Assembly: GCA_016182495.1 (NCBI GenBank)
Contig: JACPGK010000004.1
Location: 1 to 36,563 of the forward strand
Direction of reading: 5' to 3'
Origin: Candidatus Kerfeldbacteria bacterium
GTDB taxonomy: Bacteria > Patescibacteriota > Patescibacteriia > UBA9570
DNA: 36,563 nt
The notes below the pieces were generated by a model. It worked only from the letters and a program-made list of their open reading frames with translations. It did not search any database and was not told the DNA's origin. Of this stretch, positions 6,071-27,700 are shown in pieces. Positions within the stretch are counted from its first letter, which is position 1, and every line of letters begins with the position of its first letter. Position numbers and translations under genes: made by a program.

Positions 6071-7105
6071 TTAGTCTACTCTTCCTCTGTCATTATACAC
6101 ACAGCTAGGCTTAGTAGTATACACGTTAACTGATCGCGGATCGGGCGTACTATCAACGAATGAGGTGAAATCGCAATCTGAACCAGTACTGGCCGTATAC
6201 CACGTTAAACCTGAACTAGGATCACAAGCCGGTACGTTACCATTACATCGAGCGGCTTTGTATAATATCAAGTTATCACTAGGTCGTGTAGTATAACAAT
6301 AGGCATTATTAGCGATAGTGCTACCAGCAGTGCCGACTACTTGACAATTGGTAGCAGCTAAACCACACTGTTTGCTTTTTAAATCGAAGTGCCACCACTC
6401 AACCGAAATAGGGCTAAACTTTCCGGTAGCAGTCATCACCTGTTGTAACTCGAACTGATTATTGGCCAAGGCTTCATCGCCACCACCATTGTTATAACTT
6501 TGACTCAACTTACCTTTACTGGTTGGGGCAATCAGCGGGTCGCCGCCACCATAATCATACCACAAGTCAACGGCCACTCCCTTTTGATGGTTACTGCAGC
6601 ACGGTTTAGCCGCCTTGTTGCAGCTGTGACAGCCTGATGGAAAACCCTCTTTTTTTCGAGTAGTGCCAGCAGAATCAATATACCCTTCATCAACGCATTT
6701 TTGGTAACATTCATACAGGGGGGCTTGCTGTTCGGGGCTACGATAGGCCGAACCAACCTGAATGGTACAACTGGCACAAATATTAGCCACCATATTTTGA
6801 GCTACTTCTACCAAGCCAGCGGCTACGTTCGGGCAAGCTTGGGCACCATTACCACTTAAGCCCTGCACCGTTGGAATGGGTATTACTTCTACAGTATATG
6901 GACACTGGTACTGCACTGGTATTTTAAATACATCAACACCGATATTCACGGTAGCCGGGTTAATCAATAACAAAATGGTGTACGATAACAAGGCAATAAT
7001 CAAGCCGGCGAGCGCCGAAGTGATAATTTCTTTAGCGCTGGTAATTTTTTGTTCATTGCCGGCGGCCGTTACCCACTGCATACCGCCAAACATAATTAAC
7101 ACCAC
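6071..7105 (-). CDS. VirB2-like pilin segment fused to M15 (VanY-type) peptidase; frame-broken from its N-terminus
   Basis: Residues 1-50 hold half of one transmembrane helix, the conserved loop MFGGMQWVTAAGNE, and a full second helix (SALAGLIIALLSYTILLLINP), the pattern of CPR T4SS pilins. From about residue 85 the protein is a D,D-carboxypeptidase-like M15 domain: GSAYRSPEQQ, then SNHQKGVAVD (zinc ligands H173 and D180), then EWWHFD (catalytic E236, ligand H239). A cysteine-rich insertion (about 133-170) and a cysteine-rich tail flank it. Topology would put the peptidase outside, where it could trim peptidoglycan crosslinks. The GTG start at 7105 is forced: the natural N-terminus is the overlapping ORF 7096-7308 in another frame. 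Confidence 0.8.
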   Translation of the reverse strand: MVLIMFGGMQWVTAAGNEQKITSAKEIITSALAGLIIALLSYTILLLINPATVNIGVDVFKIPVQYQCPYTVEVIPIPTVQGLSGNGAQACPNVAAGLVEVAQNMVANICASCTIQVGSAYRSPEQQAPLYECYQKCVDEGYIDSAGTTRKKEGFPSGCHSCNKAAKPCCSNHQKGVAVDLWYDYGGGDPLIAPTSKGKLSQSYNNGGGDEALANNQFELQQVMTATGKFSPISVEWWHFDLKSKQCGLAATNCQVVGTAGSTIANNAYCYTTRPSDNLILYKAARCNGNVPACDPSSGLTWYTASTGSDCDFTSFVDSTPDPRSVNVYTTKPSCVYNDRGRVD

Positions 7106-7109
7106 GGCA
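6969..7109. repeat. 141-bp perfect direct repeat, copy 1
   Basis: This segment is identical over 141 bp, with no mismatch, to 10103-10243. It encodes the pilin loop and second helix (VVLIMFGG to the start of the NP motif). Its gene-proximal edge (7109) coincides exactly with the frame break of the pilin-M15 gene. The flanking bases differ between the copies. Confidence 0.95.
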
Positions 7110-7308
7110 CCGAAGCTTTACCGCCAATTGGTTGTTCTAAACTATAGCCACCTTCTGGTTTGGAAACATACTCTTCAGCCACGGCTTCACCAGCTCCACC
7201 CGGACCACAAATATCCTCTTCAGTGGTGGCTGAACCAACCGCTGGCACAATAAAAACAACCAGGCCAACCAGTACACTATTAATTAAACGTGGCCAAAAC
7301 TTCATCAA
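7096..7308 (-). CDS. Signal-peptide N-terminus of the pilin-M15 protein (separated by frame break)
   Basis: The 70-residue ORF starts MMKFWPRLINSVLVGLVVFIV and has a plausible cleavage site after VGSA. It continues to the pilin-type segment YSLEQPIGG, then stops in SVPWC followed by TAA. At that point the pilin sequence resumes in the -1 frame. Compared with the usual pilin layout, about 25-35 residues covering the first membrane helix are missing at the junction. The ATG at 7306-7308 overlaps the end of the DsbA-like gene by 29 nt. It should be read as the 5' part of the gene ending at 6071. Confidence 0.7.
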   Translation of the reverse strand: MMKFWPRLINSVLVGLVVFIVPAVGSATTEEDICGPGGAGEAVAEEYVSKPEGGYSLEQPIGGKASVPWC

Positions 7309-8035
7309 TCTTGGCTATTAATTGTTCAACTGACATTGCTTCAGTATATAATCGATCATTCACAAATACCGTGTGGCCATTAATAACACCGACAGTAGTA
7401 CCATAGTAATAATTTTGATCAACCACTGCTTGATACTGGCGACTATTGAGACACTCTTTCATGGTTAACTGATCAGCTCCCAAGCCGGTAGCTAACGTCT
7501 CCCAAGCGGATTGATCGTTACCAGTTGCGGTTGGCAGGGCTTGAATGAATTCCCAAAATAACCCTTGATCGGCCAAACAATGCGCTAGCTGTTGTTTGGT
7601 ACTAGTAGCGCCATTTGGTTGTGTAAAATCTTTCCACACTAGGCTCACTCGATCACCATAGCGAGTTCGCAAGGCTTCTATCTGATCGATATAGTTGGCG
7701 GCGGCTGGATCAGATACATCAGCAAAAAAAATCACAAACACATCAGCGCTCGGTGCTCCCAGCATTGGGTCGGCACTGGATACAAATACTCTGGTTTTAC
7801 GTTCAGCTTCAGCTTGATCAGCTGGTACGGTAGTAATCAGTGGATCATCAAATGGTACGGATTGTTGCAACAAGGCCGCTCCAGAATACACACTGCCAGA
7901 AAATGCTCCTGGAAAAAAACTTTCTAATAACACTGTTGATTTTAAAAACAGTATGGTGGTAAACAAAAAAATAAAGCCCAAAATAGCCACACCAGTGAGC
8001 GCGTAATACTGCATTTTGGAAACTGTTTTGGTCAT
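7280..8035 (-). CDS. Membrane-anchored DsbA/thioredoxin-fold protein lacking the catalytic CxxC
   Basis: A single N-terminal membrane anchor (about residues 11-32) is followed by a DsbA-like domain. The strand normally ending in FxDFxCPYC reads VIFFADVSDPAAANY, so the CPYC motif is replaced by DPAA (109-112). The cis-proline loop, normally GTPTFFING, reads GTTVGVING, so the cis-proline is also lost. The helical insert keeps family features (LAHCLADQGLFWEFIQAL, MKECLNSRQYQAVVDQN). It cannot act as a standard disulfide oxidase and may have become a chaperone or scaffold for the cysteine-rich proteins of this operon (inference). Only C153 and C195 remain. Confidence 0.8.
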   Translation of the reverse strand: MTKTVSKMQYYALTGVAILGFIFLFTTILFLKSTVLLESFFPGAFSGSVYSGAALLQQSVPFDDPLITTVPADQAEAERKTRVFVSSADPMLGAPSADVFVIFFADVSDPAAANYIDQIEALRTRYGDRVSLVWKDFTQPNGATSTKQQLAHCLADQGLFWEFIQALPTATGNDQSAWETLATGLGADQLTMKECLNSRQYQAVVDQNYYYGTTVGVINGHTVFVNDRLYTEAMSVEQLIAKIDEVLATFN

Positions 8036-8037
8036 AA

Positions 8038-9315
8038 TTATAACACGATCCGACGTAACCGACCGGTATTAGCTTCTCGATAGTATAACACATCTTCGTT
8101 ATCAGTCACTAGCAAATCAGTCGGCCCATTCAAATTAGTACCAGCAATGGGATCAGCTGGCGTAGCTAATTTTACAGCGATCCCTTGATGAATATCAATT
8201 TTATAAATATCGTGCGGCACATTATTCAATAAGCTTGGGGCAATGCCTCCGCCAGCGGGTGGATTCACCGGCACAGCGCAATACACCGTACTGCCAACCT
8301 TGTTAAAGGTACATTTATCAACGGAGGTGTTGAGATTCAATGATTTATTATTATCACCAATGGTATCACCATAGGCATCGACAATATGAAGTGTTGAATT
8401 ATAATTATTTTCGGCCGTGTAGGTACTGTACAGCATTTGCCGACCATTGTTTGACCATTGATAATTAAAGCCACGCCCTTCAACAATAAAATCTTTAAAA
8501 TTTTCACCTTTTAAACCAATCGGGATAACTTTTTTAGTGTCGGCATCAATAAATTCACTATAGGCACCAATGGCTTGGCCCGATGGTGACCACTCGGCCA
8601 GTACGCGATCACCGTTTTCGCCTAACGGTTCAATACCTAAAGCGCCACTGCCATCGATATTGGCAGTACCTAACCAACGATCTTGCGGGTTATCGGCCAT
8701 GAACTTAAAGCTAATTTGATCATCCGTTGGGGAAAAATCAAACTCTTGCATATCTTCATGCAAGGTATACTGCTGATCACGTTCAAAATCGTACAAAATA
8801 TTGAAACCATCTTGCAGTTCAAGCACCGCTTTGTTGGCATCGTGTGACCAGGTGGCTTGCTCAACTCCTTTAAACACCGCCTCACCTAATTGTACAACAT
8901 TACCATTGGCATCTATCCGGTAAAACCGCCCGGTAGCCGCATCATAATATTGCACGGTATCACCGTCACCACTCAATACCACATTTTGGGCATCATTATT
9001 ATAAATCACTTGAGCTAAGGTATTGCCACCGTTAGCGGTTTCTGTGAAGGTTGGTAAACCAGCCACATTGTCATTGATCACGCCACGATTGGCATTATTA
9101 ATAATCTCCGGCAATTGATTGACGTTAATCAATTGCCCATTAATGTTGACGGTTGGTTCGGGAAGCAATGGTTTAAAAAATAGCCAAAAAATAATAACGC
9201 CTAAAATAGCGGCCATTAATAAAATACCAGTCGCCAACACAATTCGGCGTTGGGTTTCGGTTAAATCTTCTACCCAAGTGGTGATATTCACAATGACATC
9301 GCGGAGATAATTCAT
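8038..9315 (-). CDS. Membrane-anchored beta-propeller (TolB/PD40-like) protein
   Basis: A cytoplasmic N-terminus of ~25 residues and one membrane helix (VLATGILLMAAILGVIIFWLFF, about 26-47) precede a ~370-residue extracellular domain. That domain is made of repeated strands with the TolB/WD40-like pattern: QATWSHDANKAVLEL, EFDFSPTDDQISFKFM, LAEWSPSGQAIGAYS and YQWSNNGRQMLYSTY. Such propellers are common in CPR T4SS-like loci and probably bind partner proteins or glycans. A TATACT box 5 nt upstream of the ATG suggests an internal leaderless promoter. Confidence 0.75.
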   Translation of the reverse strand: MNYLRDVIVNITTWVEDLTETQRRIVLATGILLMAAILGVIIFWLFFKPLLPEPTVNINGQLINVNQLPEIINNANRGVINDNVAGLPTFTETANGGNTLAQVIYNNDAQNVVLSGDGDTVQYYDAATGRFYRIDANGNVVQLGEAVFKGVEQATWSHDANKAVLELQDGFNILYDFERDQQYTLHEDMQEFDFSPTDDQISFKFMADNPQDRWLGTANIDGSGALGIEPLGENGDRVLAEWSPSGQAIGAYSEFIDADTKKVIPIGLKGENFKDFIVEGRGFNYQWSNNGRQMLYSTYTAENNYNSTLHIVDAYGDTIGDNNKSLNLNTSVDKCTFNKVGSTVYCAVPVNPPAGGGIAPSLLNNVPHDIYKIDIHQGIAVKLATPADPIAGTNLNGPTDLLVTDNEDVLYYREANTGRLRRIVL

Positions 9316-9320
9316 AGGCT

Positions 9321-9326
9321 AGTATA
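9321..9326 (-). promoter_or_regulatory. Possible internal leaderless promoter (-10)
   Basis: TATACT ends 5 nt before the ATG of the beta-propeller gene (9315). The -35 region is weak. It matches the spacing seen at the other suspected leaderless starts in this window. Confidence 0.35.
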
Positions 9327-9327
9327 T

Positions 9328-10239
9328 TTATGGTGCGTAACAAAAAGTATTTATTTTCTGAGAAAAAATACTAAAAATATTATAAGATGCAATATAAGAA
9401 GAAGAAATGGCGTCTCTTGTAGCCAACTGACAATTAAAACCACTACCTTCATAGGCGATGGGGTCAGTGGATCCAGCCGGTTGCCCCAGTTTACAATTCC
9501 AGGCTGCCTCAACACCAGTATTCAATCTCCAATCACTGCCGGCTATTTTTTCTTCACAAAGATCTCCCATTGTTTTATATATAGCAGCCTCCGCTGCCGC
9601 ATACGTAGTACCCCATGTACCATAATCATAATTAGCCGGAATTGACGGTACTTGAGGTAATAGTTTCATACTGTAGTAAGAACATACGCAATCACGCGTG
9701 GCTGTTTCTTTGGTATCAGAACTGCCGATCATAAATTTTTTGTATTTTGCTTCAGTCATGCAATCTTGCACCCATCGACCGCAATCATCAAGCTGGCAGG
9801 ATAACGCGCTGGCTGGTGTAAGTGGATCAGGGTAACAACCACCATCACCGCTTTCGCAGCGATCACCACGGCAATATTCTCCATCAAAAAATCCTAAATG
9901 ACCACAGGCGATATCTGGGCAAGGGATATCTTTTTTATCTTCACCGATACAGATATTATCTTTAAAATTGGCCGCGCTGGTTTTGCCATCATCGAATTTA
10001 TTATTGGAACATTTCGGTAAGTTATAAATACTATCATCGTTCTGCTGAATATCAATTTTAGAAACATCCAAGGTAATATTCACTAGAGTCGGATTAACAA
10101 ACAACAAAATGGTGTACGATAACAAGGCAATAATCAAGCCGGCGAGCGCCGAAGTGATAATTTCTTTAGCGCTGGTAATTTTTTGTTCATTGCCGGCGGC
10201 CGTTACCCACTGCATACCGCCAAACATAATTAACACCAC
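9328..10239 (-). CDS. VirB2-like pilin segment with cysteine-rich extracellular domain; frame-broken
   Basis: The first ~45 residues are identical to those of the pilin-M15 protein (MVLIMFGGMQWVTAAGNE and the second helix). After NPTLVNITLD the protein diverges completely into a ~250-residue tail with about seventeen cysteines (for example CPDIACGH, YCRGDRCESGDGGCYP, DCVCSYY), no peptidase motifs, and C-terminal FCYAP. It appears to be a paralogous pilin carrying a different, disulfide-rich head domain. The GTG start at 10239 is artificial: the real N-terminus with signal peptide lies in another frame at 10230-10406. Confidence 0.75.
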   Translation of the reverse strand: MVLIMFGGMQWVTAAGNEQKITSAKEIITSALAGLIIALLSYTILLFVNPTLVNITLDVSKIDIQQNDDSIYNLPKCSNNKFDDGKTSAANFKDNICIGEDKKDIPCPDIACGHLGFFDGEYCRGDRCESGDGGCYPDPLTPASALSCQLDDCGRWVQDCMTEAKYKKFMIGSSDTKETATRDCVCSYYSMKLLPQVPSIPANYDYGTWGTTYAAAEAAIYKTMGDLCEEKIAGSDWRLNTGVEAAWNCKLGQPAGSTDPIAYEGSGFNCQLATRDAISSSYIASYNIFSIFSQKINTFCYAP

Positions 10240-10243
10240 GGCA
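10103..10243. repeat. 141-bp perfect direct repeat, copy 2
   Basis: Identical to 6969-7109 over its full length. Its upstream edge (10243) coincides with the frame break in the second pilin-like gene. Confidence 0.95.
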
Positions 10244-10406
10244 GGGCGGCATTTTGAATTTTACTCACACCACCAATGGGTTGCTCTAATTGATAGGCAA
10301 TTTGTTCAACGTAACCAGAATTTTGAGCTTGGGCCGATGGAACTAGTACAAAAATAAAAAAAGCCAGAAAAAGAAGGCATGTTCTGCTGAATGATCGCCA
10401 GTTCAT
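10230..10406 (-). CDS. Signal-peptide N-terminus of the second pilin-like protein (separated by frame break)
   Basis: A 58-residue ORF starting at the ATG 10404-10406: MNWRSFSRT, then a hydrophobic core (CLLFLAFFIFVLV) with a likely cleavage after PSAQA. It continues YQLEQPIGG, parallel to YSLEQPIGG in the other copy, and ends LPWC-TAA. As in copy 1, the pilin sequence resumes in the -1 frame at this point and the first membrane helix is missing. No Shine-Dalgarno sequence is visible. Confidence 0.7.
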   Translation of the reverse strand: MNWRSFSRTCLLFLAFFIFVLVPSAQAQNSGYVEQIAYQLEQPIGGVSKIQNAALPWC

Positions 10407-11047: not shown

Positions 11048-12949
11048 TTATTTCATCTCTTCGGCAAACTCTTTCTTGGATTCCTCAATTTCTAACAACT
11101 GTTTAGGATCGGATGTAACAATTTGATCTTCTGTGTACGATGCTACCACTTTAATGGCGGCGTGTCGAGCACCGGCAAAAAAAATACCTTCACCAACATT
11201 GCCTTCTAGCAATAAATATTTCTCGCCATCGGTTAATAAAAATGTTTTTTGGATGTTATCAATGGCCGCCGGCGATTGTTTGAGTAAAATCTGCAAAGAA
11301 GAATTGGTCACAATGGCCCGGCCATAGGGTGATAACAAAAAGTCATTGACATCTTGGGTAATCGTAGTAACGCCTAAATAGTATTTACGACAACGCTTGA
11401 CTAGAGCAAAAATAAACTTGGCGGAATCTTCATTTTGCATTAACCACCAGGCTTCATCAATCACCAAAATACGTTTTTTTAATTGCGACCGTACTACGTT
11501 CCAAATGTAATTGACAATCATGTACACCCCAATGGGGCGTAATTCATCTTCTAAATCACGCACCGAAAACACCACTAACTGATTATTCAAATCGATATTA
11601 GTTAGGCTGGAAAATAATCCGGCAAAGGTGCCTTCGGTATATTTTTTTAAACGTAACACTAAATCTTTACTGCCTTCAAAGCCTTCTAAAATATCTTGAA
11701 AATCTTTCATCACCGGCGGTTCAATGGTGGATAAATCGGCCTCGGCGGTAATATCTTTTTTGGCGTAGGTTTCAATTAAGGCGCGATCAATAATAGAATC
11801 TTCCGCCGGGGTAATATTACCCAACATGATACGTAATAACCCTTTAATGGTAATCACCGCCGATCGAATGATATCAGCCGGACGATCGGCCCCACCCACG
11901 GCGCGCGGTAAATCGAACGGATTAATTTTGACTTCGGAGTTTAACGATATATTTAAAAATGTTCCGCCAACCGAATCGGATAAATATTTATATTCATTTT
12001 CCGGATCAATAATAATCACATCCGTACCCATCATTAAACTGCGCAACACTTCTAATTTAATAGTATAGCTTTTTCCGGCACCCGAAGTAGCGAACACTAC
12101 CGAATTGGCATTTTGCAATTTGAAACGATCGAATAGTATTAAACTGTTATTATGACGATTAATACCGTACAAAATACCGTTATCACTGGTGAGTTCAGCC
12201 GAAATAAACGGAAACGACGAAGCACAAGGGGACGAATTCATGTTGAAATAAATTTGCAACTCATCGTTGGCTAATGGCAGGGTAGAACTAAAACCTTGTT
12301 CCGCTTGGTAAAATACCCGTTTTGCCACCACTAATTTAGAACCAAACTCGGAATCTAACTTTTCCATTAAATCCTCTAACTGTTTTTCGGTATCGGCGTA
12401 CACACTCACGTACAAGGCGTATTGAAAAAATTTCTCGGTGCCTTGCGTTAAGCTATCGCGTAAACCTTCAATATCCTTCAAAGCGGTTTCTTTGATGGGG
12501 TCGCGCGGGGCGCCTTTTTCGGCATCAGAAATTAATTCGGCCTCAAGCGAACCAACTTTCTTCTTGAGCTGTTTTAAAATAATATCCGATCGCACTGGAT
12601 AAAAATACATGGCGATATCAAGCGATAAATTCATCATCACCAACGGCGCGAACCAACCAACCGCAATGTAGCGCGGATAGGTTACCACAAACATCGTTGA
12701 AACAAACCGACCACCTAAATCAATATGACGCGGCCGCACTCGTAAAGCCGCCGGCGCGATTAAATCGAGTACCGAGCGCACCCCTAATTCGTAGGCTTTG
12801 GCCGCTTCGAGCAATTCACGGGCCTGGTACTGCTCGGATTGTTTTTGTTGCTTAGCCAAGGTTAACTGTTCCTTGGTTCTGGGTTTCAAGGCGGCGGTCA
12901 CTGGTATGGTTTTGCCATCACGCTGGGCAGCGCGTTTAAAATCAATCAT
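11048..12949 (-). CDS. virB4: VirB4/TraC-type T4SS ATPase, C-terminal piece
   Basis: The 633-residue product contains the ATPase core. Walker A is TSGAGKS (288-294), preceded by the VirB4-like VVFA strand. Then come TDVIIIDPENEYKYL and the Walker B RILVIDEAWWLMQN, then GVTTITQDVNDFL and SSLQILLKQSP. The N-terminal ~120 residues include RPRHIDLGGRFVSTMFVVTYPRYIAVGWF, the usual start of the VirB4 central region in CPR. VirB4 energises pilus assembly and substrate transfer at the inner face of the membrane. It overlaps the N-terminal piece by four bases (ATGA), so the two are probably translationally coupled and act as one enzyme. Confidence 0.93.
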   Translation of the reverse strand: MIDFKRAAQRDGKTIPVTAALKPRTKEQLTLAKQQKQSEQYQARELLEAAKAYELGVRSVLDLIAPAALRVRPRHIDLGGRFVSTMFVVTYPRYIAVGWFAPLVMMNLSLDIAMYFYPVRSDIILKQLKKKVGSLEAELISDAEKGAPRDPIKETALKDIEGLRDSLTQGTEKFFQYALYVSVYADTEKQLEDLMEKLDSEFGSKLVVAKRVFYQAEQGFSSTLPLANDELQIYFNMNSSPCASSFPFISAELTSDNGILYGINRHNNSLILFDRFKLQNANSVVFATSGAGKSYTIKLEVLRSLMMGTDVIIIDPENEYKYLSDSVGGTFLNISLNSEVKINPFDLPRAVGGADRPADIIRSAVITIKGLLRIMLGNITPAEDSIIDRALIETYAKKDITAEADLSTIEPPVMKDFQDILEGFEGSKDLVLRLKKYTEGTFAGLFSSLTNIDLNNQLVVFSVRDLEDELRPIGVYMIVNYIWNVVRSQLKKRILVIDEAWWLMQNEDSAKFIFALVKRCRKYYLGVTTITQDVNDFLLSPYGRAIVTNSSLQILLKQSPAAIDNIQKTFLLTDGEKYLLLEGNVGEGIFFAGARHAAIKVVASYTEDQIVTSDPKQLLEIEESKKEFAEEMK

Positions 12950-13638
12950 GATGGTAAGGTACTACTATCAACCCGTAACTTAGCTAAATCTGGCAACTGT
13001 TTATTACTGCCACGAGTGGGATTATACATTTGATAGTACAGTTCAATTAAACTTTGGGTGTCGAGCTGTGATACCTTTAAGCCAATCGAGCTTAATCCTC
13101 CCGCGGCAATACTCATCCGACGATCTAACTCTTTTTTATATTTCGCAAACTTGGCATCAGCTAAGCGAATAATGCGGCTTGGAAACACCACTTCTTGGAT
13201 GCGGGTGAAAAAATTTTTACGCTTTTTTGAAAAGGGCGAGTACGGTACCACTACATAAAACTTTTTTTCCATAATTTCGGCTAAGGTGACCAACTCTTCA
13301 ATATATTGACGATATTCTTGCGTTTGCACTTTGAGCAGTTCGTTAGGTTGATTTTTGGCAAGCGTATTCAAATCTTCTAAATATGGCCTGATATCCAGCT
13401 TACGGGATTGAATGACAATTTGTAATTCAAAATCAATCGAGTTTAAAAATCCCACGTAACCTTGAATAATAGCGTGCTGTTCATCTTCACTTTTCAAGGC
13501 AAAATTAATCGAGGATACATCTAACACTGCGCGCAAGGTACCATCTTTTAAAATAACGGTATCCTGCTTCACCTCCGCAATATACACACTATGCTGGGTA
13601 GATGGTTTTTTAGATTTAGCTGGGGCTGTTTTTGGCAT
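12946..13638 (-). CDS. VirB4/TraC N-terminal domain protein (split VirB4)
   Basis: The 230-residue product starts with a Lys/Pro-rich tail and then shows the TraC/VirB4 N-terminal pattern: VYIAEVKQDTVILKDGTLRAVLDV, NFALKSEDEQHAIIQGYVGFLNS, FELQIVIQSRKLDI, and KKFYVVVPYSPF. It has no ATP-binding motif. In CPR genomes this domain is usually encoded separately, just upstream of the ATPase piece, as here. It would contact the membrane complex (PrgI/VirB3-like, VirB6-like). It starts 1 nt after the prgI stop. Confidence 0.85.
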   Translation of the reverse strand: MPKTAPAKSKKPSTQHSVYIAEVKQDTVILKDGTLRAVLDVSSINFALKSEDEQHAIIQGYVGFLNSIDFELQIVIQSRKLDIRPYLEDLNTLAKNQPNELLKVQTQEYRQYIEELVTLAEIMEKKFYVVVPYSPFSKKRKNFFTRIQEVVFPSRIIRLADAKFAKYKKELDRRMSIAAGGLSSIGLKVSQLDTQSLIELYYQMYNPTRGSNKQLPDLAKLRVDSSTLPS

Positions 13639-13639
13639 G

Positions 13640-14086
13640 TTATGTTTGATCGGCCTGTGCGGGGCTGTATTTACCGGCGGTATCCATAATTAAAGATAAT
13701 TCAGCCAGCTGCGACTGCGATACTTCTGGTTTGGGTGTAAACTGATCGTTATCTTTATGATCTTTCTTGCGATCTTTACGCGACAGTTTGGTGATTACTT
13801 GATGCACCGGATCGCGCCGCCAAATACTTAAGTGCGGCCGCTTTAAGGTTTGAATTAAACTCAAGGCAAACAAATGAAACGGCTGACTATTTACTTTGGC
13901 AAAGGCAAAGGTGCCGCCTAAAGTTAACGTGAATACTCCCAAAACAGCAAAAATAACAAAACTAAAAATTTCATAGAGCAAAAAAATCAACCCAGCGGTC
14001 ACCAATAAAATTAAAAATTGCCGCACCGAAATTGGACCAATCACTTTTGATTCAACTTCAATAAATTGCGGGACAACAAATTGCAT
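13640..14086 (-). CDS. PrgI-family protein (VirB3-like T4SS membrane component)
   Basis: The N-terminus MQFVVPQFIEVESKVIGPIS is the PrgI signature, followed by RQFLILLVTAGLIFLLYEIF and a second helix, FVIFAVLGVFTLTLGGTFAFA. Then comes the conserved short motif PFHLFALSLIQTLKRPHLSIW. The tail (about 95-148) is polar and charged, probably cytoplasmic. PrgI proteins occupy the VirB3 position and bind VirB4, whose gene follows immediately. Confidence 0.88.
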   Translation of the reverse strand: MQFVVPQFIEVESKVIGPISVRQFLILLVTAGLIFLLYEIFSFVIFAVLGVFTLTLGGTFAFAKVNSQPFHLFALSLIQTLKRPHLSIWRRDPVHQVITKLSRKDRKKDHKDNDQFTPKPEVSQSQLAELSLIMDTAGKYSPAQADQT

Positions 14087-18702: not shown

Positions 18703-21700
18703 TTAATCAGTGCTAACCAGGATATTAAATGACGGTGTATCGTAGGTGCCGCAATCGTTACCAATATTAGTGGTGCTATCGCCACTAAAGCGATGATCGC
18801 CGGCTCCTTGAGCGCCGGAACAAAAATTCCAGTGATCCAGCAAGGTAATCTGCGGTTGAAACTCACAATCGGTATCCACATTACCATCAATATCGGTATC
18901 CACATTACCATCAATATCATAGCCGGCGTATTCTGGGCCACAGTTGTAGGCATGGGTAAAAATATGGGTGGTGGGAGCAGCTTCCCAGGTAAAGCGGTTA
19001 GTGTTGCCATCGCCCCAATCAATGTAAATGAAATCCAGAGCGGTTTGTTCAGCATTCACCGTTGACGTGAATTGAAATTCAAGGGTACGGCCGGCTTCAA
19101 CATCGTAACTGCCATCAGCAAAATCACTGGCAGCGGTATGGCCATCCACGGCAATCACACCACTGGCAATGGCTGGTAAAATACCACAGTATTCATCGGC
19201 TTCATCACTGGGCCGATCAGTCAAAATGTTACCATCGGCATCGGTACAAATTGACATATCAGCAAAAATGTTACCATCGCCATCATCCCAATAATCGGGT
19301 ACACCGTTATTGGTATACACTGTTCCAGTCAGGCTGGTAAAATCCAGTTTGTAGAAATCGCCAGCAATATCAGCAAACACATGTTTTAAGCGTTCACGAG
19401 CATTATCTACTACTCCGGTAATTTGATCATCTAAGGTATCGTACGTGCTGGCCAATGTTACCAGGCCATCGGCTAATCCTTCCGCGCTAACTTCGGCATC
19501 GCCAATGCCCATGCACACGCCGTTATCACCGCAATCACCATCATCATCACATTCATTACCATTACTACCGCTTTCACTGAAACTATTCACACAAAAGCGT
19601 TGATCACATTTACCAATGCAGCTTAATGGCCGCCCGGAGTGTGGCGCCGAACTGCTGGCAACGATTGGCTGGTAGTTGAAAGTCCCATCAATATAGAGAT
19701 TAATAAAGTTTTCAGGGTCAACAGATAAATACGGATCCCACACCAATGGAGTATCATCTTGGGTAGTGATTGAACCGTACGGTGAATTATCCGAGCCAAA
19801 TTGAATGGGGTTATCACTTTGACTATTGATGGCATACCCATCACTGCCATTAGCCGCCCGGCTGGCCCAAGCTACATTATCACCATTGGGAGTGACATCT
19901 TGAGAAATCACCGCGCAGCTTTCGCGCACTTGCAAATCAAGAAACATGTGTTGGGAGTAAGTCAATTCCACACCTCGATCGGTATCCGGCGTGCCATCGG
20001 CTCCAACATACAATAAATAATATACCGCTTGAATATAGCCCTGCTCATTCACATCCAGCCACAAGCTAAACAAATTATTTCCACCATCCGCATCTGCCCC
20101 GCGTTTGGCTTGGATATCTTGTAACGAATCCCACCCTGCCCAGCTGCCTAAATCATCTTCATCAAATACATAGGTAGCGTAATCTTCGCTGGTGATTTGA
20201 TTTTCTACGATATTGTTTAACACACTACCAGGTACATGGTTCCAAGGATTGCGTGAACCATTGTTATCGGTGGTGGTCCAGCTAGCCACTTGATTGCCAT
20301 CACTCGAATCAATCCCCATCACCTGTTTAACGGTTTGTTCAACACAGGGTGAGGCAAACATATCGGGTTTACTTTCGGCGGTAACTAATTGATTAAAGCG
20401 GTATAAATATTTATCTTCATCATCGGTATCGGCCTGTTCACAATGATACAGTAATTCACTTTCTTCAGGGCCGTTATCAAGATCAAAATTACTCCAGGCC
20501 CAGTTATACACAATATCCATGTTATCGTAACTACCGGCTTGATCTTCATAGTAAGTGGGTAAAAATTCACTGTCGTACAAACCCCAATTACGGCAACCAA
20601 AGCCTGGTACTTCAACGTCAAAGCCAGCGCAATCATTCCATGGTTCATAATCACCGGTAGCATCGTTACGACTAATTGAACCTTCGAAAAAATCAGTTAG
20701 CACCCAATTACCGTAGGCGCTGCAATCATAACTACCGCAATTAGTGGGATCATCCGGATAAGCCGGCGTGCGATCATACGGCGATACTGAAGCATTCTCA
20801 AGATCAGCTCCATAACCCAGCTGGCCCCAATATTTATATTCATCTGTGACTCCTCCGGTTTCACCGGCGGAACCGGTATTGTAAATAATCGATTCAATTT
20901 CGCTGATATGAATGTTGCGTAAAATTTCATTGGCCGGGATACGGGCAATCATGGCATGATCATAATCACGTTCGGTATTGACATCAAATACATCTGGCAC
21001 TTGCCAGCGTAAGGCACGCACGCGGTAGCCGTTATCAATTTCATTATAATCGCCAACATTATCTTCATCCAAACCAGTTTCAGGATGATCCTTTTCGGCG
21101 CTGAACGCGGCTACAGTGACAGCTGCTTCAGTATCAAAGTTATCAGTATTGGCAATACCATCATTATGCGTGGGGAAAGTGTAATTAGCCCCTTGGATAC
21201 ATTCACCGCTATCGCACTGATCGTTATTGGTACAAATTTTACCAGTGCCAAAGGTGATTGGATCGTTCGTATCCCAAGTGGCTTCATCACAAAAGCCAGG
21301 TTCTTGTAAACCTTTCGATACCAAACAATGGTACACGTTCGATCGACCACCGCTACCGTTATAGCCCGATGGCACTCGCTCGACAATAGATTCTTCACCA
21401 GCCAAAATATCTTGTGGCCACCAACTGATACACCGTTGATTATTAGTGGGATCTTGTTCTAAACAATAGCCTTTCCAACCTTTAAATACGCCGCCAGTAG
21501 CCTGGGTATAATCACATTGCAAGGCATCGCTTTCGGGGTAGGCTCGGCACGACCGAGTAATAGGATCAAGTTCTTTGCTCACTTCTAACACCGGCATTAA
21601 CGATACATTATCAATTTGAATGTGTGAGTTATCAGAGGCTAAAAATTCCAAATCAGTCGTTACGTCGACAATTTCGCTGTACGCCGCCTCGTTATCTTCT

Positions 21701-24700
21701 TGTAATTGCGTAGTGGTGATGGGGCCAAAGGTGTAGGTGCGCATGATTGAATCCATCTGGAAAATTTCCACATCGCTTAAAATACTGCCATACAACCGAT
21801 CAACAATGGTAGTATCGCCGGCCCAATCTGAACTGGTGGCATACGGAGCAGTGTTATCATCGGGGTCGGTATAATCATACACATCGCCACCACTGGCATC
21901 GGCCAGGCTGGCATAGTTGGCACTACACGGGCTACCAGTAGCAGCATCGTCGGCATTATCATTGGCACAAGCCTCGCGACCGTTAGAAATAACATACACC
22001 GGCACCGAGGCCAGTTGAGCAGAGCTGGTAGCTTGAGCTGAACCGATATCGTTGCCAATTTCATCACCGGTATCGGTAACAATAATAATAAACCGTTGGG
22101 CATCGTTACGGTAGCTTAATGATTCACCGGTGGGCAAGGTATTGTTGGCTATGTTGACTACGGCATTAAATGGATCAACTAAGGCGGAAGTAGCTACCAT
22201 GGCATCAACGGCTTCAAAGAAAGTACCGCTAGTACAATTATTGCTGGCATCACGGGCATCACACACATCAGCGGTAAAATCTAAATCCAAATCATTAGCA
22301 TCATCATCCGCTGCCCCATCACCATCTAAATCAAACCGGTCCATATCCACTAGCGCAAAGCGAGCATCCACGCCCGAGGCATCAAGCAAATCGGCTAAAT
22401 CAACTATGGCCTGTTGCACAGCATTAATTTCTCCAGACATTGAACTAGAGGTATCAATGGCGAACACAATATCAGCTGCCCCGTAACCGCTCACAAAACA
22501 ATCTTTTCGTTCAACACTGATATCCGTATCATCCGGATCAACCATACCATTATGATTTAAACAAATTGTTAAAGTAGATGGTGATACCGCATCTAATCCA
22601 GCATAATTACCATCGTACCGGCCCTCGAACGACAAAGCGTAGCTGCCGCCAGGAATAATATTATTACCATTATTACTTAAATCATATTCTACACCGCTGG
22701 TGAAGGAAGTATTGGGTTCATTTTGCGGTTCTACTTCCAATACATTATTAACGTCAATTTGTGGACAATCATCGGTACAATCTGGTACGCGTGGATCATA
22801 CTGACTCACCTGAACAGTAGCTGTGCCAACAGTTTGCCAACCGCGAGCGGTGTAACTGACATCGTTGAGTGGTGGGCCACCAAATGGCCAATCAAAAAAT
22901 GCAGGCGTGTTTGGACAATAGTAGGTGGGGTTGGGTTGATCGTCATCAGTGCTAAAAGCCGTGGCCACATCGTCACCGGCGATAATGGTAACCGGATCAT
23001 TGGTAATGTCGGTATCTTGCAACCGGCTTTCAATTCGGCTGGTAAAACAGTTACCCGCTTCGGGGCTAGCCGTAACAATATCAACTTGCGTGGCATTGGT
23101 AATACACGGCTGGGTAGTATCGGCATCGCTACCGGCGCAATACAGGGTTTCAAAATCGTTATGTTCAATCAAATCTTGCCCGCTGCTAGCGCCGCTCTCG
23201 CCAATTTCATACATCCAACCATACGGATAATAGCCGTTCACAGCAAATGGATCAGCACAGGTATAGGTTTCCGGATTACAATCATCATTGGTGCTGCAAC
23301 TGATACCGCTGCCAACACACAGCCCACCGGTACAGGTATCGGTACAATCACTATCGGCATCACATAATTGTCCAGCATACGGCCCAGCCTGACACGACCG
23401 GGTGCCTGGCCAAGTAACGCCAGCTTTGGCATAGCCAGTTAGATTAGTCATATCTAACAAGGCATCGGTATCACCTTTGGCTGAAGTGTATTGAATATCT
23501 AACGATGGACTCAATTGATCGTAGGCTGGTTTGGGTACCCAGGAGGAACAGTTACCATTGGCATCGAGTTCATTACAAATATTAATATTATAACACTGGC
23601 TGGATTGATTACCTTGATCATCAATCACCGTAGCAGCGGTTTCGCAAGCTAACCATTCACTGCACACCCGATCACGGTTCACTTTTAACACGGTATTAGT
23701 ATCACAGGCATCGGCCTGGTTACGGCAGGTATCAGAATTTGGAGTTAACAAACAGGTGGTGCAATCTTGAGCATCTTGAGCATAACTTTGGGTATCGTAA
23801 GTAATATCACGGAAAGCCACACAACCACCATCGGATAAAATATCATTCAAATCAACATCTTGCGTATCACACGAATTGGTACTATCAATTGATTCTTTCT
23901 CCGATGTGCCATCAACCGTATAATCGAGGTAATAATACTTATCATTCTGTTTTAAGCTGACGGCATCGAAATACATGGTGGTAGCAGAATGATTCGCCAC
24001 AAAGGCTCGGGCATACACCGCGTTGCCAGGCCATTCAATGGTTGAACCTAAACCAATATTACCCTGCCAGCGATACCATTTACTCATGCCATCGGTATCC
24101 ACTTCGAAAGCGGTATCAGAAATAGTAGCGTGATTGGCGACAATATAGGTGACGCTATCATCGACAGTGATACCATCCGCCACGTGATCTACATCAGCCG
24201 TATCATTAGTAAAAAATTGTAAACCGATACTAAACTCAATTGGTGTATCGGTGGTGCTATCTTCATCATCAAAGCCAATTTGTGGCATTTTCACCATGGC
24301 CTGCAAAGTGTAAAGCTGGTCTCGTTCAAATTCATGGAACTTGATTGGGCTGACAGCACAGTTGGTTAAGGCCAGAGCCTTGGCACCATCAGCGGCTGCT
24401 ACAGCGGTAGTTTCAATCGCTTTGATAATATCGTTGGCACAACTGCTATCAAAGTCAGTGGTACCATCCAAATCTAAATCGACCGTACTATAATTAACGT
24501 CATCAGCAATGCCATCGCCATCGTTATCAACATTGATGCCCGAACCATTTTGTGGTACTGCCCAATAATCCGGAAAACCATCAGGCGTAGCATCCGAGGC
24601 ATAGTACACGTTATCGAGGTCGCGAGCATCATCTTCAAAGCTCCAATTGTTAATCACTTCGGCAATATTAGGACTATACGGATCAACGTATTCTGAACAA

Positions 24701-27700
24701 CCCGATTGCTCACCGGGACACTGCCCTACCCAGCCAAAATCTGGAGTGGTTAAAGTAACTCCATCATCAACATACTGCAGATAATTATGAATGCCGCCAT
24801 TGTACACATCGACATCATCAGCGGGGTTGGATAAACAGCGTGGGGCAGGATCACTACTATCCCAATCGGTTGGATAACAATCGGCATCAGAATTACATAA
24901 TTTATCCACTTTGCTGCTAGCGACAGTAAAATCATCATTCAAGTGCACACTATTACTACTACACACGCCGCCCAAAGGCTGTGATGGATCGGCATACTCA
25001 TACTGCACCGGGCAATCGGGCGAGGCAGCGGCACTATCTTTTTTAAACCAACCTTGCACCGTGTTACCAGCTTCGTTGGTGTATTCTTTTAATTCACAAA
25101 TTTTATCGCCGGGGTCTTTAAAGTACACTGTGCCATCGTATTCCGAATCATATTGGCGACACTGCAGTTGCGGTTGTTCACATAAAATTGAAACGTAATC
25201 ATCGGGTCGATCCAACAGATAAGTTGATTGGTATTCTAAAATTTCTCCAGTCCGTTCATCAACATCGGGTAAGCCAACTTCGCTACAGCCATACACTGTT
25301 TGAGAACATTGATTATCGTCATCGTACACCAAAGTAACCGGCTGATCGTATGGCACAATCACATCATCTTCGTTGTACTCATTATTCAGGTTATAGCCTT
25401 CGGTAAACGGATTAGTGGAATTGGCGGTATCAATCATTGCTTCACAGCCGACAGCGGCGGTATCACATAACCGCTGGAACGATTTTAAATAGTGGGTGAC
25501 AGCAGACCGATCACTGTACTCACGACAACCTTCAAAACCAAGACAAGTGTTGGCCGTATCCTGAATTAAATATTGGCTATTCGATTGCGTCAGCCTAATG
25601 GTATCAATAAAGGCTTCGGCAGCGGCACTGCCACCGGTATATTGCAGAGTAAACGTTTCATCACCTGCGGCAACGCTTTCAGCTGTATCCACAATCACCG
25701 GTCCAACTTGATAGTACTGCCAACCACCTTCACCATTGGGATCAAGAGTGACTGACACTGGCGTACTACTGGCTCCGCTGGTAGTAAAGTAGTAGTCATT
25801 CGCTAGGCCATCAAGGTTAAAGGTGGCGCTGCCGGAATTCCAGCTGGCCGCTGCTCCGGTACAATCGGCAATGGTAGTATAGGTTGCATCAGAACAACTG
25901 CCACCATCCACTTTGGCCCAAAAGGTAAGAATATACGAACTACCAGCATTTAATAATCCAACTGTTTCGGTATCAACCGTGGTAAATAGATTATATGAGA
26001 TAGCCGCATTAGTGGCATTGGCTGCATCAGCGTCGTGCAGTTGCAAGGAATAATCGCCCTGGCTTAAGGCTTCGTTACTGGTAGAGGTAGCTCCGGCCCA
26101 AGCTTCGTACGAGTTGCTGGCAAAAGTTTCATTAATCACCTCTTCAGTTGCTCCGGCATCGGTACCACGATATTCACGACATCCCACTTCGGCAGCGGCA
26201 CAACTATTACTGTCATTCGGTATGGCATAGTATACGCGGGTATCTTGCGAATTACGCAGTGGAATACAGGCATCGGATACTACAATCACTTCAGATTCAT
26301 AGCGATAGTAAATGTTGCCACTATCATCCAAAAATTGACGACAATCGGCGTTGACACCATATTCTTCATCATCAGTACTGACATCACTGTTATTGGCAAT
26401 GCCATCGTTATCTAAATCACCGCTGGGTCCACAATCATGAACGGTGGTGCCACTTTCGCCATCTTGGCAATCGGCATTAAACTCTTCACTCTGTAAATCA
26501 AGCTGGGTGCAGGGAGCGCCAACATAAGGAACATCATTAGCCACTTTGAACAAATAATCATTAATCCGTACGCCACCGCTATCATCACTGCCTTCGAATG
26601 TATGGAAGGTGGCAATGGCAGTATCGTTGGTTTTAACGCACTGCTTCAAATCGGTGTAATATTCTAAACCTTCACCACCTTGGGCTGCGGCATCAAGGTT
26701 GGTGTATTCTTCACAACCCACCGCCGAAATACCGCACTGATCAGCCGATGATGGCACAATGGATAATTGTAATTGACAGGTGGCTCCTGAAACGCAATCA
26801 GTATCGGCAAAACAATGAGTGACACTATCATTACTGCAATACCCACCGTAGCGCTGCATCACTCCTGGTCGTTCTGTAACATTATCCAACCAAGGCTCAT
26901 CCGTGGTGATAGGAGTGGTGTTATCTAATCCTATCTCTTGGTAAAAACCGCACCCTACAAAATAATCATCAGGCTGATCAAGGACTGGGTTACCATTACA
27001 TTGGTTACAGGACGGGTTGCTATAATCGTAATCACCGTTAGCGTCGACACAAGCGGCTGACCCGGCATTGGTAATTAAACCGGGGATACCTTCTTCTTCA
27101 TCCCGGCCAGCTTCAACATACAATTCGCAACCAACATCTGCGGGCTCGCAACGTAAGGTATCACCATTAAGATAGGTAGCGTTATTGCTTAAATAATTTG
27201 GATAACTGTTCGTAAATGAATCGGCTTCAACCAGAGTAGCGGCTTCGATATCAATAGCGCAGTTGGCGTGTTCGTTGATTGATACGGTAATGGCGCTACC
27301 TAAATCAACCGCCAAATCAGACTGGTTCGGGAAGGTGTGAGTAACATAATAATCACGGAAACTATCCGAATAACTGGTAATGGTAGCATCACTGGCATCG
27401 GTAAACGACGTGACCGTTTCGATATCATAGCCATTGGCATCGCCAATACTAAATGATAGGTCGCAGGTAGTGGTGCTGGCATCAAGGGATAAGGCCGAAT
27501 AGGCAAACGTAAAGGTACGATTTGATACATTTTGACCAGTATCTACTGTTATGCTTAAAGCACCATCACCGCTGCCATCCGCCACCAAGTGAGCATAATT
27601 GGTACTGTAATTAGTGGTCACAGTGCTGGTAAATGAGGTATCTGTACCGCTGGTGAATATATCAACCACGGCGTCATCTTGAATCCAACCAATGCACTGA

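What the first reader, a model, noticed from the sequence alone, without database searches (positions are those of the whole stretch)
6969..10243. Twin frame breaks at the edge of a perfect 141-bp repeat in two pilin genes
Both pilin-like genes have a signal-peptide ORF ending PWC-TAA that switches to the -1 frame exactly where the 141-bp identity starts. Both lack the first membrane helix. The same lesion twice, with the same boundary, fits a longer identical repeat whose left part was lost when contigs were joined. From memory, 141 equals the largest default k-mer of one common metagenome assembler, which strengthens this. The alternative is a recent gene conversion spreading a real lesion, or a conserved frameshift.
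Basis: partly seen in the sequence, partly recalled or inferred. Interest (0 to 1): 0.7.

Follow-up and report, generated by a model that had tools for sequence, protein, structure and literature searches.

The report
Assembly joint breaks two pilin genes
Two neighbouring pilin-like genes of an uncultured Patescibacteria-type bacterium look broken in the same way, almost certainly because the assembly program could not resolve a short stretch they share and a piece of each was dropped, so the breaks probably do not exist in the living cell.

Summary
Two T4SS_pilin (PF18895-like) genes share an exact 141-bp repeat (6969-7109 and 10103-10243). In each gene the signal-peptide ORF ends in PWC-stop within the repeat's first 14 bases, the remaining coding frame starts there, and the first membrane helix is missing.

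The artefact reading is well supported. The genome's contig ends share exactly 141 bases in 26 pairings and never more, so the assembly graph used k = 141. In 739 kb of this genome the window's pair is the only repeat of 135 bp or more lying inside a contig at both copies. A k = 141 graph breaks the window into three contigs, so a join was made. Leaving a short shared repeat node out of that join reproduces the window exactly. All 78 comparison homologues, apart from two cut by contig or locus edges, keep the helix in frame; closest relatives carry both genes intact. A conserved frameshift is excluded; a real twin lesion is unlikely.

One detail does not fit neatly: gene 1 stops five codons earlier than gene 2, so a symmetrical loss needs a short in-frame deletion in gene 1, or uneven trimming. 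I estimate 49 bp lost in gene 2 and 49-64 bp in gene 1. No reads were available.

The parts
6969..7109 (-). copy 1 of the exact 141-bp repeat (second to third helix of pilin gene 1)
   Evidence: exact match to 10103-10243, ends verified
10103..10243 (-). copy 2 of the exact 141-bp repeat (second to third helix of pilin gene 2)
   Evidence: no further copy in the genome
7109..7110 (-). suspected bad joint in gene 1 (about 49-64 bp missing, encoding the first membrane helix)
   Evidence: frame break at the edge of the identity; relatives have the helix
10243..10244 (-). suspected bad joint in gene 2 (about 49 bp missing)
7096..7308 (-). 5' fragment of gene 1: signal peptide and linker, ends KASVPWC-stop
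6071..7108 (-). 3' part of gene 1: helices 2-3 of the T4SS pilin domain followed by a VanY/peptidase M15-like domain
10230..10406 (-). 5' fragment of gene 2: signal peptide and linker, ends IQNAALPWC-stop (58 aa)
   Evidence: read
9328..10242 (-). 3' part of gene 2: helices 2-3 of the T4SS pilin domain and a cysteine-containing C-terminal region

Best explanation
The twin frame breaks are an assembly artefact. In the real genome the two pilin genes very probably share an identical tract longer than 141 bp (recent gene conversion), which begins in the first-helix codons. In a k = 141 de Bruijn graph this tract is a shared repeat node R with two entries and two exits, and the DNA between the genes forms a loop. 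The assembler then delivers three long contigs: those that leave R begin with its last 141 bases, and those that enter R end with its first 141 bases. When these were joined, each entering contig was cut back by k, the next contig was appended whole, and R itself was left out. This drops the left part of R (length minus 141) from both genes and leaves exactly 141 identical bases after each joint. Shown here: exact 141-bp repeat, k = 141 contig ends, impossibility of the contig as one k = 141 contig, exact reproduction by the model, and intact relatives. Inferred: the true repeat length, and the tool or person that made the join.
For: Contig ends of the window's genome share exactly 141 terminal bases in 26 pairings, none longer. 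Published rule: MEGAHIT end overlap = largest k, k-list ending in 141 (PMC10914622). In 738,860 bases, the window's 141-bp pair is the only repeat of 135 bp or more with both copies inside contigs; the rest lie within 0-5 bases of contig ends on both sides, except one 139-bp C1/C38 match that is terminal on one side only. Cut at k = 141, the window falls into three pieces of 7109, 3275 and 26461 bp; at k = 142 it is one. The join model with R left out reproduces the window letter for letter for every equal lost stretch tried, from 1 to 200 bp of random filler. Of 78 comparison homologues, 76 are open at least 25 codons upstream and the other two are cut by contig or locus edges; only the window's two lack the helix. 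Relatives G001-G003 have both genes intact in the same arrangement. The rest of both ORFs is undamaged (303 and 344 codons), and the lost length is 1 modulo 3 in both genes.
Against: No reads were available. Two contig pairs in the same genome overlap head to tail by 141 bases and were left unjoined, so a general joining step is not evident. By homology gene 1 stops five codons (15 bp) before gene 2; the simple model requires equal losses (the unequal case fails), so it needs a five-codon linker deletion in gene 1, or uneven trimming. All eight close relatives in the alignment have the same linker length. In relatives the two paralogues are not identical (longest exact run 17 bp in G002 and 11 bp in G003), so a recent conversion tract in this species has to be assumed.
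Confidence: 0.87

Rival explanations
1. A real double lesion: both genes lost the first helix in the cell, and a recent gene conversion made the neighbouring 141 bp identical.
For: The sequence as deposited reads this way. The gene-1 and gene-2 left boundaries differ by 15 bp in homology, as two separate deletions could give. A further pilin cluster on contig C13 could cover for a loss.
Against: A converted lesion would lie inside the identical tract, not at its edge. Two deletions would have to end at the same base, and the tract would have to equal the assembler's k. Even a true repeat of 141 bp or more could not lie inside one k = 141 contig. Both ORFs are otherwise intact.
Confidence: 0.07
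2. A conserved programmed frameshift or translational bypass in these pilins.
For: The same PWC-stop reading occurs in two genes.
Against: No homologue shows it; in 57 genomes searched and further contigs, the homologues read through encode the helix in frame. A shift alone would not restore the missing first helix.
Confidence: 0.01
3. An artefact made inside the assembler (local assembly or strain mixture) rather than by a later join of contigs.
For: It would allow unequal losses in the two genes. Local assembly errors are described for metagenome assemblies (PMC7111523). Unjoined 141-bp overlaps elsewhere argue against a general joining step.
Against: It does not explain why exactly k identical bases follow each joint, and a k = 141 contig cannot hold the same 141-mer twice.
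Confidence: 0.05

Closest known systems
Contig breaks and k-length end overlaps at repeats in MEGAHIT and metaSPAdes assemblies (PMC10914622)
   Same: Contigs of this genome end in overlaps of exactly the largest k, and the internal repeat is exactly that length.
   Different: Here the overlap lies inside one contig, and coding sequence appears to be missing next to it.
Local assembly errors at repeats in metagenome-assembled genomes (PMC7111523)
   Same: An identical short repeat and incorrect protein-coding sequence at its edge.
   Different: The error is duplicated in two paralogues and shows the k-mer length directly.
VirB2-like T4SS pilins (PF18895) encoded near VirB4 in Patescibacteria (PMC12102498)
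   Same: Signal peptide, FGGxxW, AAGNE and AKE motifs, two of the three hydrophobic helices, position next to VirB4/TraG-like ATPase and PrgI-like genes.
   Different: First helix missing as deposited; long C-terminal parts, with a VanY/M15-like domain in gene 1; identity of the two copies over 141 bp, whereas pilin arrays are reported to be at most 54% identical in protein.

Membership tests
Assembly artefact at a k-length repeat | repeat length equals the k of the assembly graph | tested here: met
   141 bp in the window; contig ends share 141 and never more
Assembly artefact at a k-length repeat | the contig could not come out of that graph as one piece | tested here: met
   three pieces at k = 141, one at k = 142
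Assembly artefact at a k-length repeat | equal loss in both copies | tested here: inconclusive
   same codon phase in both, but 15 bp apart in homology
Assembly artefact at a k-length repeat | reads clip or carry extra bases at the joints, depth doubled over the repeat | not testable with these tools
   no reads held
T4SS_pilin (PF18895) | match to the full-length profile above the curated cut-off | tested here: not met
   21.3 and 21.8 bits against a cut-off of 26.6, profile positions 25-68 only; both genes of G002 and of G003 reach 32-40 bits over nearly the whole profile, while G001 gene 1 reaches 21.7 bits over positions 5-70
T4SS_pilin (PF18895) | encoded next to VirB4/TraG-like and PrgI-like genes | tested here: met
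   P-loop_TraG at 11048-12949 (E 5e-29); PrgI-like at 13640-14086, slightly under its cut-off
Conserved programmed frameshift | same frame break in homologues | tested here: not met
   absent in all comparison homologues

The most novel reading that the evidence does not exclude
The sequence is right as written: this lineage has lost the first helix of both VirB4-linked pilins, with signal peptides cut off from the rest, so that the T4SS pilins are inactive here or made as two polypeptides.
Probability: 0.05. Interest if true: 0.4.

Novelty: not a real feature. Interest (0 to 1): 0.15.

Why it matters
Two T4SS pilin genes in this genome should not be read as pseudogenes or as frameshifted genes. 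More generally, a repeat inside a contig whose length equals the assembler's k, with a gene broken at one edge, is a simple sign of a bad joint that can be screened for in public metagenome genomes without reads.

Tried and rejected
A conserved frameshift was rejected: no homologue shows it. A gene conversion spreading one lesion was rejected as the main reading, because the lesion sits at the edge of the identity, not inside it. A third repeat copy or a leftover fragment with the missing part was sought in the genome; only the two known copies were found. Other repeats of exactly 141 bp inside contigs, as further cases of the same fault, were sought in 739 kb of this genome and 188 kb of a relative (G001; GenBank title with k141 in the contig name): none. 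A second contig of the same species was sought in viral contigs: none; the genome collection gave only relatives.

Full report
What is there. The window is contig C22 of a 38-contig, 1.3 Mb genome. Genomes of the same family carry the same two genes; the closest named records are Patescibacteria-type metagenome genomes. On the minus strand lies a type IV secretion neighbourhood: a PrgI-like gene, a VirB4/TraG-like ATPase, then two pilin-like genes about 3.1 kb apart. The two share an exact repeat of 141 bp, 6969-7109 and 10103-10243. In each gene the signal-peptide frame enters the repeat and stops at its 12th-14th base (PWC-stop), while the pilin frame continues to the end of the gene. The Pfam T4SS_pilin profile matches only from position 25.

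What should be there. In family relatives G001-G003 both genes are present in the same arrangement and intact, with a first helix between the linker and VVLIMFGG. In a wider set, 80 sequences were compared. Besides the window's two, 76 are open at least 25 codons upstream, and the other two are cut by a contig or locus edge. The helix is therefore general in this set, and a conserved frameshift is excluded. By codon phase and homology, gene 2 lacks about 49 bp, and gene 1 about 64 bp if its linker had the usual length, or 49 bp if its linker is five codons shorter (inference). Both lengths are 1 modulo 3, which gives the observed frame change.

Why the assembly is to blame. I fetched both ends of all 38 contigs. 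Twenty-six pairings share exactly 141 terminal bases, others 140, none more. This is the signature of a graph with k = 141: contigs of MEGAHIT overlap by the largest k, and its k-list ends in 141 (PMC10914622). In 738,860 bases of the genome no exact repeat exceeds 141, and all repeats of 135 bp or more lie within 0-5 bases of contig ends on both sides, with two exceptions: the pair in question, and a 139-bp match between the end of C1 and a place 813 bases inside C38. The next longest repeat within one contig is 72 bp. A relative's 188-kb contig (G001; GenBank title names it k141) has a longest internal repeat of 115 bp, also below k (title and length). Cutting the window at k = 141 gives three pieces (7109, 3275, 26461 bp); at k = 142 it is whole. 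So C22 cannot be one raw contig of that graph, and something joined three pieces at this very 141-mer.

The mechanism. If the true repeat R is longer than 141, the contigs entering it end with its first 141 bases and those leaving it begin with its last 141. Joining by cutting 141 bases from the entering contig and appending the leaving one, with R left out, gives exactly the window, whatever the lost stretch contains; I tested random fillers of 1 to 200 bp. The model explains the identical right boundary, the exact length and the same codon phase at once. R would be about 190 bp if 49 were lost. From memory, MEGAHIT does not report contigs under 200 bp by default, which would explain why R was not at hand; this was not tested.

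What does not fit. Under gapless homology the gene-1 boundary lies five codons before the gene-2 boundary, and the unequal version of the model does not reproduce the window. Either gene 1 carries a real in-frame deletion in its linker, possibly made by the conversion event, or the trimming was uneven. Also, two head-to-tail 141-bp overlaps elsewhere in the genome were not joined, so the joining step is unknown. In relatives the paralogues differ (longest exact runs 17 and 11 bp), so a recent conversion in this species must be assumed; reported pilin arrays are at most 54% identical in protein (PMC12102498).

Verdict. It is not a biological feature. Reads would settle it.

Noticed in passing
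6071-7108 (-): Pilin gene 1 continues into a VanY/peptidase M15-like domain with SNHQKGVAVDLW and VEWWHF motifs (below the Pfam cut-offs); the relative in G002 has the same combination above the cut-offs. A membrane-anchored cell-wall peptidase might take the role of VirB1, which is often missing in these bacteria.
   Followed up: partly
18703-30474 (-): A 3923-aa predicted secreted protein rich in cysteine, aspartate and serine, with a weak von Willebrand A match; perhaps a surface protein of the secretion locus.
   Followed up: no
11048-13638 (-): The VirB4-like protein is encoded as two overlapping ORFs (230 and 633 aa), the first without a Pfam match.
   Followed up: no
L034-L041, G000 contig C13 about 21.0-25.6 kb: A cluster of about ten further small pilin-like ORFs in the same genome; those read through keep the first helix.
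   Followed up: partly
7280-8035 (-): A thioredoxin-fold (DsbA-like) gene lies between the two pilin genes, whose products contain many cysteines.
   Followed up: no
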